The position numbers were made by a program, and so were the translations under genes. The notes under the pieces are model-generated. The model did no database searches, was not told the origin of the DNA, and was given only the letters and a program-made list of their open reading frames with translations. Shown piece by piece: positions 28,754 through 29,209 of a stretch of DNA of 64,000 nucleotides (positions within the stretch are counted from its first letter, which is position 1; every line of letters starts with the position of its first letter). Source of the DNA: Leishmania mexicana MHOM/GT/2001/U1103 (taxonomy: Eukaryota > Euglenozoa > Kinetoplastea > Trypanosomatida > Trypanosomatidae); the NCBI RefSeq assembly GCF_000234665.1, contig NC_018335.1, forward strand, positions 1 to 64,000, written 5' to 3'.

Positions 28754-29209
28754 TCAAAAAAAATTCGGCTCCAGCCCATTGTGCTCGTTCATCTCAGTCA
28801 CACCATTAGTGAGCATTTCCTCGACAACGAAGTACGCCTTCTCGGAGTGGCACATGACGACCAGCTCGCATGCGCATTCAAAAGTACATGTCAAAGCAAT
28901 CCATGACCGCTTGAATGAATCCCGTGATGGCCAGGTCGTTCTCTTGATGGGCTTTGCAGACGACAACAGCGTTTTGGCGAAGAACGCTATCAACGCCAAC
29001 GATAGCGTAAAGCAAGGCGTATCGACCGTAGATTGCGCCTGTGGTTAAGGTGATCCAGAAAGTTGCAGCCGCCCTCACGTCGGTACAGGCATGTGCGAAC
29101 CTGCTTCACTTTCCAGAGCAGTGCGGGTGCCTAGAAGAATAAGGTGGAGTTAGGGGGAAAGTCACATCCTCCCTTGCATGTTCATCCAAATCACAAACTC
29201 GACTGTCAT
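28754..29209 (-). pseudogene. Decayed adaptor-complex sigma subunit (AP-4 sigma-like)
   Basis: Sigma subunits are about 140-160 aa small chains of clathrin-type adaptor complexes. The relic starts at an ATG at 29209 with MTVEFVIWMNMQGR, matching the usual M-I-x-F-x-L-x-x-N-x-Q-G start, and then meets a stop. It resumes in another frame with CLYRREGGCNFLDHLNHRR (about 29090-29035), shifts to IYGRYALLYAIVGVDS (from about 29033) through ENDLAITGFIQAVMDCFDMYF to a stop at about 28878. It shifts again to CELVVMCHSEKAYFVVEEML (about 28867-28808) and NGVTEMNEHNGLEP. An 8-T run at the end hides a final shift into FFLMDPEN. The order and spacing of blocks are those of a sigma chain. NG...LxPxxxxxD at the end resembles AP-4 sigma more than AP-1, AP-2 or AP-3. 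At least three frameshifts make it non-functional. Confidence 0.75.

What the first reader, a model, noticed from the sequence alone, without database searches (positions are those of the whole stretch)
28754..29209. Broken sigma-adaptin gene, most like AP-4 sigma
A full-length ghost of a sigma chain runs through five blocks in shifting frames on the coding strand of the cluster. The C-terminal block (NG...LxPxxxxxD) fits AP-4 sigma. AP-4 is patchily lost in eukaryotes. If the other AP-4 subunits are also missing or broken in this genome, this is a fossil of the loss of a trafficking complex.
Basis: partly seen in the sequence, partly recalled or inferred. Interest (0 to 1): 0.75.

Follow-up and report, generated by a model that had tools for sequence, protein, structure and literature searches.

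The report
Fossil of a lost trafficking-complex gene
A Leishmania chromosome still carries the broken remains of the small-subunit gene of AP-4, a protein complex that sorts cargo inside cells and that this parasite lineage has lost, and a second broken AP-4 gene lies on another chromosome.

Summary
Minus strand 29209-28766 aligns nearly end to end with AP-4 sigma in four blocks of shifting frame with two in-frame stops; identity to Willaertia AP-4 sigma is 69 of 134 residues. The frameshift-aware score is 240-268, against at most 46 in 200 shuffles per query and at most 111 for the genome's own three AP sigmas. Human AP-4 sigma is the best solved-structure match. The genome searches found three intact AP sigma, three AP mu and six AP large-chain genes and no intact AP-4 gene. 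New here: a second relic, a broken mu chain on contig C30, nearest to AP-4 mu. L. donovani has the same remnant, annotated as part of a chimeric gene model. No epsilon or beta-4 remnant was detected. The absence of AP-4 from Leishmania is published; my searches showed no report of its remains. The finding is a unitary pseudogene: ordinary in kind, but direct evidence that the Leishmania ancestor had AP-4 and lost it by gene decay.

The parts
29102..29209 (-). Relic block 1 (first frame): N-terminal part of AP-4 sigma, begins with ATG, holds two in-frame stops
29038..29100 (-). Relic block 2 (second frame): VRTCLYRREGGCNFLDHLNHR, matches the R-CL-R---CSF-EH stretch of AP-4 sigma
28884..29036 (-). 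Relic block 3 (third frame): YxRYAxLxxIVGVD ... ENDLAITGFI; has 13 extra codons relative to the AP-4 sigmas it was aligned with (a lineage insertion or part of the decay, not decided)
28766..28882 (-). Relic block 4 (first frame again): CEL-VM---EKA-FVVEEM--NG ... LEP, C-terminal part
28742..28765 (-). Possible fifth block: short tail with -MD after a run of T, in another frame (weak, not in the scored alignment)
   Evidence: read by eye
26889..27803 (-). Downstream flanking ORF on the same strand, 304 aa, no Pfam match
30779..31474 (-). Upstream flanking ORF on the same strand, 231 aa, NIF-type phosphatase domain

Best explanation
The feature is a unitary pseudogene of the AP-4 sigma chain (AP4S) in a Leishmania genome, probably L. 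mexicana. The Leishmania ancestor had a working AP-4 complex. After AP-4 became dispensable its genes lost constraint. The sigma gene collected frameshifts and stops where it stood between two neighbours of its cluster of same-strand genes. The mu gene decayed in the same way on another chromosome. The beta and epsilon genes have gone or are beyond recognition. The relic makes no protein. Any transcript would be an untranslated part of the polycistron or of a neighbour's UTR. Shown here: homology, family, disablement, no intact copy found in this assembly, and a second relic nearest to AP-4 mu. Inferred: the order and cause of the loss, and that the relic has no function.
For: Frameshift-aware alignment to AP-4 sigma scores 240-268; shuffles reach at most 46 and the rest of the window at most 49. 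The joined pieces match human AP-4 sigma at 70 bits, against 48 for AP-1, 41 for AP-3 and 35 for AP-2. The relic is 47% identical to P0105 (63 of 134); the genome's three intact sigmas are 40-43% identical to it (another aligner). In a 17-row tree the relic falls among AP-4 sigmas, apart from sigma-1/2/3 (94/89), next to Willaertia and P0105. In the whole-genome search with P0105, the relic's two fragments come right after the three intact sigmas (E 0.017 and 0.043); the sixth and last row is a place in a 714-aa frame that I read as delta-COP. A second relic on C30, 1386197-1384874, has 6 shifts and 3 stops and is best matched by plant AP-4 mu (229, against 173, 114 and 79 for own mu-1, mu-2, mu-3; shuffle maxima 44 for mu-4 and 58 for mu-1 in 60 each). 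L. donovani has the same mu remnant. Papers report AP-4 absent in Leishmania (PMC3650584, PMC4977521) and present in Leptomonas pyrrhocoris (PMC4810370).
Against: No reads were available, so assembly error in this stretch is not formally excluded. No intact sigma-4 of a trypanosomatid could be fetched (one search found none), so the gene was judged against distant relatives only. At columns invariant in 11 AP-4 sigmas the relic keeps 34 of 52, about as many as five sigmas of other families (27-36 of 53-55). At 16 sigma-4-diagnostic columns it matches sigma-4 in 8, another family in 2 and neither in 6. Beta-4 and epsilon remnants were not found. The mu relic's AP-4 label rests on smaller margins.
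Confidence: 0.94

Rival explanations
1. A decayed duplicate of one of the living sigma genes (AP-1, AP-2 or AP-3), not AP-4.
For: All sigma chains share the fold and several motifs. The relic matches sigma-4 at only 8 of 16 diagnostic columns.
Against: The genome's own sigma-1, sigma-2 and sigma-3 score 79, 102 and 111, against 207-268 for nine non-human AP-4 sigmas and 152 for the human one. The tree and the solved-structure ranking agree.
Confidence: 0.03
2. A living gene made to look broken by sequencing or assembly errors.
For: Reads were not available. A run of eight T lies near the C-terminus.
Against: Three frameshifts and two stops fall within about 440 bases, while the flanking ORFs are open. 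Residues invariant across the AP-4 sigmas compared are also substituted, 18 of 52. A mu partner is broken too and has a counterpart in L. donovani that is annotated only in pieces. Published surveys find no AP-4 in Leishmania.
Confidence: 0.02
3. The remnant is kept because its RNA or DNA now does something else, for example as part of a UTR of a neighbouring gene.
For: It is still recognisable and lies within a cluster of same-strand genes.
Against: Nothing tested shows constraint. The mu remnant is less alike between this genome and L. donovani (197 of 268 identical) than the gene beside it (191 of 207), as expected without constraint. The sigma remnant itself could not be compared across species.
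Confidence: 0.04

Closest known systems
AP-4 complex subunit sigma (AP4S1; small adaptins, Pfam PF01217)
   Same: Collinear homology over nearly the full length; best match among the sigma families
   Different: Disabled by frameshifts and stops; no open frame covers it
AP-4 loss in Leishmania, Phytomonas and T. congolense (Manna 2013, PMC3650584)
   Same: Same complex, same lineage; the absence was already known
   Different: That survey reports absence (parts 1-3 of 5 read). Here physical remains are located. It places one loss at the base of Leishmania plus Phytomonas; retention in Leptomonas pyrrhocoris (PMC4810370, passages) makes a separate, later loss in Leishmania more likely
Unitary pseudogenes in general
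   Same: A single-copy gene decayed with no working copy found
   Different: Here two partner subunits of one complex appear to have decayed on different chromosomes

Membership tests
AP-4 sigma chain (as a decayed member) | Collinear homology to PF01217 small adaptins over the whole domain | tested here: met
   joined pieces 51 bits, E 1.8e-13, over the cut-off of 22.5, profile positions 3-126 of 142; alignment from residue 1 to 135 of 144
AP-4 sigma chain (as a decayed member) | Closer to sigma-4 than to sigma-1, sigma-2 or sigma-3 | tested here: met
AP-4 sigma chain (as a decayed member) | Sigma-4-diagnostic residues kept | tested here: inconclusive
   8 of 16 diagnostic columns match sigma-4, 2 match others, 6 match neither
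Unitary pseudogene | Reading frame disabled | tested here: met
   three frameshifts and two stops; 5, 9 and 4 stops in the three minus frames
Unitary pseudogene | No intact copy elsewhere in the genome | tested here: met
   PF01217: 6 matches, which I read as three AP sigmas, a zeta-COP, and the N-domains of a mu chain and of a delta-COP; P0105 search. The assembly has 545 contigs and may be incomplete
Unitary pseudogene | Intact orthologue at the same site in a sister genus | not testable with these tools
   no trypanosomatid genomes held; PMC4810370 (passages) says L. pyrrhocoris keeps AP-4
Loss of the whole AP-4 complex | No intact mu-4, beta-4 or epsilon | tested here: met
   mu: 4 PF00928 matches, three of them nearest to AP-3, AP-2 and AP-1 mu, one read as delta-COP. 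Large chains: 9 PF01602 matches; three nearest to AP-1/2 or AP-3 beta, one to AP-2 alpha, one is gamma-COP and one an armadillo protein; three were not searched against solved chains and are read as AP-1 gamma (it has the PF02883 ear), AP-3 delta and beta-COP
Loss of the whole AP-4 complex | Remnants of all four subunits | tested here: not met
   sigma and mu remnants seen; none of beta-4 or epsilon
Loss of the whole AP-4 complex | Tepsin, the AP-4 partner, absent | tested here: inconclusive
   one ENTH protein only, not identified further; PMC4977521 (passages) reports Tepsin absent in Leishmania

The most novel reading that the evidence does not exclude
Leishmania lost AP-4 recently and on its own, after parting from Leptomonas and Crithidia and separately from Phytomonas. 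The loss came before the L. mexicana-L. donovani split, and at least two of the four subunit genes stayed in place as fossils. The order and date of loss of a whole trafficking complex could then be read from the lesions shared and not shared across Leishmania species.
Probability: 0.6. Interest if true: 0.6.

Novelty: new member of a known kind. Interest (0 to 1): 0.5.

Why it matters
The absence of AP-4 in Leishmania, as far as the papers seen here tell, rests on failing to find it. A located sigma relic plus a mu relic turn absence into direct evidence of ancestral presence and decay. They set a testable time window for the loss (after Leptomonas, before the L. mexicana-L. donovani split) and, with the published retention in Leptomonas, argue against a single loss shared with Phytomonas. 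They also suggest that a public L. donovani protein named as an adaptor medium subunit is a gene-model artefact that could mislead surveys.

Tried and rejected
Protein search with the joined sigma relic: no candidate shares three words, so no trypanosomatid sigma-4 was obtained. Search for the AP-4 epsilon ear domain PF14807: nothing, but nothing rang in the controls either, so it shows little. Beta-4 and epsilon remnants with recalled plant queries, long and as conserved parts: only places inside open frames of the intact large chains. PF01602 at E up to 10 adds three weak hits inside open frames of 726 aa or more, not followed. A decayed duplicate of sigma-1/2/3 was considered and rejected. 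I considered that the L. donovani protein P0121 (475 aa) might be an intact mu-4 and rejected it: its first 200-odd residues are the neighbouring gene (191 of 207 identical; that gene is an open 248-aa ORF in this genome), and the rest is pieces of the mu remnant with several stretches left out. Plasmid collection: no match, as expected. One search was an empty script; one search failed on a file name.

The mu assignment is less clear-cut than the sigma one. Solved-structure scores are close (AP-4 mu 66 bits, AP-1 mu 59). Human mu-4 and mu-1, both partial, score 187 and 164 against the relic, and human mu-1 too reaches the C-terminal end. The 8-row tree sets it apart from mu-1/2/3 with support 98/96 and beside human mu-4 with 83/84; plant mu-4 does not join them.

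Rows left out: of the 120 AP-4 sigma hits listed (2058 in all) I fetched 16, chosen by eye for spread, and used 9 and 10.

Full report
What and where. The window is the first 64,000 bases of contig C31 (1.52 Mb) of a 32.03-Mb assembly in 545 contigs. It begins with telomere-type repeats (41 CCCTAA in the first 3 kb). The organism is a Leishmania: the N-myristoyltransferase at 23476-24741 matches solved chains over its full length at E 1e-289 (their Leishmania origin is recalled, the output names no species), and a gene beside the second relic is 191 of 207 identical to part of a protein labelled Leishmania donovani. Contig sizes, such as one of 3.34 Mb, suggest L. mexicana (recalled karyotype, not a tool result).

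Observation. Minus-strand frames over 28640-29300 show adaptin-like pieces in changing frames. I wrote a frameshift-aware local alignment (BLOSUM62, penalties for shifts, stops and gaps). Against P0105 (source id RCo027115, probably the euglenid Rhabdomonas costata by recall) it aligns 29209-28766 with 63 of 134 identical, three shifts and two stops, score 240. Against Willaertia P0083 it gives 69 of 134 and 268. In 200 dinucleotide shuffles per query the maxima were 42 and 46. With P0105 over both strands of the whole window the next best score is 49. The harshest penalties tried leave three AP-4 sigmas at 185-236 and own sigmas at 71-103. The four blocks are listed under parts.

Which sigma. 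The same region scores 79, 102 and 111 with the genome's own sigma-1, sigma-2 and sigma-3, 105 with a human sigma-1, 36 with the protein read as zeta-COP, 152 with human sigma-4 and 207-268 with nine other AP-4 sigmas. The joined pieces hit human AP-4 sigma first among solved chains (70 bits; AP-1 48, AP-3 41, AP-2 35). This query was assembled by me from three frames, so its absolute E-value is flattering; the ranking is what counts. In a 17-row tree the relic lies with the AP-4 sigmas (94/89), next to Willaertia and P0105. The relic row was aligned to Willaertia, which may favour that neighbour. Against this: the relic keeps 34 of 52 sigma-4-invariant columns, while five sigmas of other families keep 27-36 of 53-55, and it matches 8 of 16 diagnostic columns. 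That is what a decayed gene would show, but it is not proof by itself.

Rest of the complex. PF01217 finds six places, which I read as three AP sigmas, a zeta-COP, and N-domains of a mu chain and of a delta-COP. PF00928 finds four: three are nearest to AP-3, AP-2 and AP-1 mu and the fourth I read as delta-COP. PF01602 finds nine. Against solved chains, two rank AP-1/2 beta first (442 and 277 bits, AP-4 beta 218 and 136), one AP-3 beta (328, AP-4 beta 90) and one AP-2 alpha (391, AP-4 epsilon 134). By Pfam one is gamma-COP and one an armadillo protein. The other three I read as AP-1 gamma (it has the PF02883 ear), AP-3 delta and beta-COP from sequence and size; these three were not run against solved chains. 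No intact AP-4 subunit was seen. A whole-genome search with P0105 lists the three intact sigmas, then the two fragments of this relic (E 0.017, 0.043), then the place read as delta-COP.

A second relic. The frameshift-aware alignment covers 1386197-1384874 with 109 of 425 identical, six shifts and three stops. It scores 229 with plant mu-4, 173 with own mu-1, 114 with mu-2 and 79 with mu-3; the shuffle maximum is 44 in 60 for mu-4 and 58 in 60 for mu-1. Of these four only mu-4 aligns to the C-terminal end; partial human mu-1 does so too, with 164, against 187 for partial human mu-4. In an 8-row tree the branch that sets mu-1/2/3 apart from the relics and the two mu-4s has 98/96. Solved chains rank AP-4 mu first by a small margin, 66 against 59 bits.

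L. donovani. A protein search with the mu remnant returned one protein at E up to 0.001 among 564 candidates: P0121, L. donovani, 475 aa. Its first part is the neighbouring gene (191 of 207 identical; an open 248-aa ORF at C30:1387040-1387786). Its last 270 residues are stretches of the same mu remnant (197 of 268 identical) with several stretches skipped. I read it as an automatic gene model that runs from a live gene into a pseudogene. The remnant is thus shared by two Leishmania genomes and is less alike between them than the gene beside it. No L. donovani DNA was seen, so its own lesions are inferred from the skipped stretches.

Beta-4 and epsilon. Plant queries find only places in open frames of the intact large chains. 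A remnant as well kept as that of mu-4 should have been seen, so these genes are probably deleted or far more decayed. This is an inference, because each of these searches scored only five or six candidates.

Literature. Manna 2013 (PMC3650584; parts 1-3 of 5 read) reports AP-4 absent from Leishmania and Phytomonas and puts one loss at their base. The Leptomonas pyrrhocoris genome paper of 2016 (PMC4810370; passages) states that this species keeps AP-1 to AP-4. The T. cruzi clathrin interactome (PMC4977521; passages) recovers all four AP-4 subunits and Tepsin and says that Leishmania and Phytomonas lack both. The Phytomonas genome paper (PMC3916237; passages) reports AP-4 loss there. Searches for a report of AP-4 remains in Leishmania showed none in the listings; one search listed 20 of 32 papers. 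Of all these I opened passages of PMC3060929, PMC6141808, PMC4081786, PMC6262978 and PMC5936940 besides those above; in the last two the hit was the word adapting. Subscription papers and database annotations were not searched.

Conclusion. Together with the mu remnant it is a fossil of the loss of AP-4 in Leishmania. Mechanism: relaxed constraint after AP-4 became dispensable, then decay in place. Shown: homology, family, disablement, no intact copy found in this assembly, and a second relic with a counterpart in L. donovani. Inferred: timing (after Leptomonas, before the L. mexicana-L. donovani split), independence from Phytomonas, and lack of function.

Noticed in passing
C30:1384874-1386197, minus strand (L041, outside the window): Broken mu-adaptin, nearest to AP-4 mu, with six shifts and three stops; a second AP-4 relic in the same genome.
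   Followed up: yes
P0121 (L. donovani protein, 475 aa): Public protein named adaptor medium subunit appears to be a chimeric gene model: a live neighbouring gene run into pieces of the mu-4 pseudogene.
   Followed up: partly
1-3000: Contig begins with CCCTAA telomere-type repeats (41 in the first 3 kb), so the window is a chromosome end.
   Followed up: no
29036-28884: 13 extra codons in frame inside the third block, absent from the AP-4 sigmas it was aligned with; could be an old lineage insertion in the living gene.
   Followed up: no
21635-22558: SNARE-domain protein, the third ORF of 200 aa or more downstream of the relic on the same strand.
   Followed up: no
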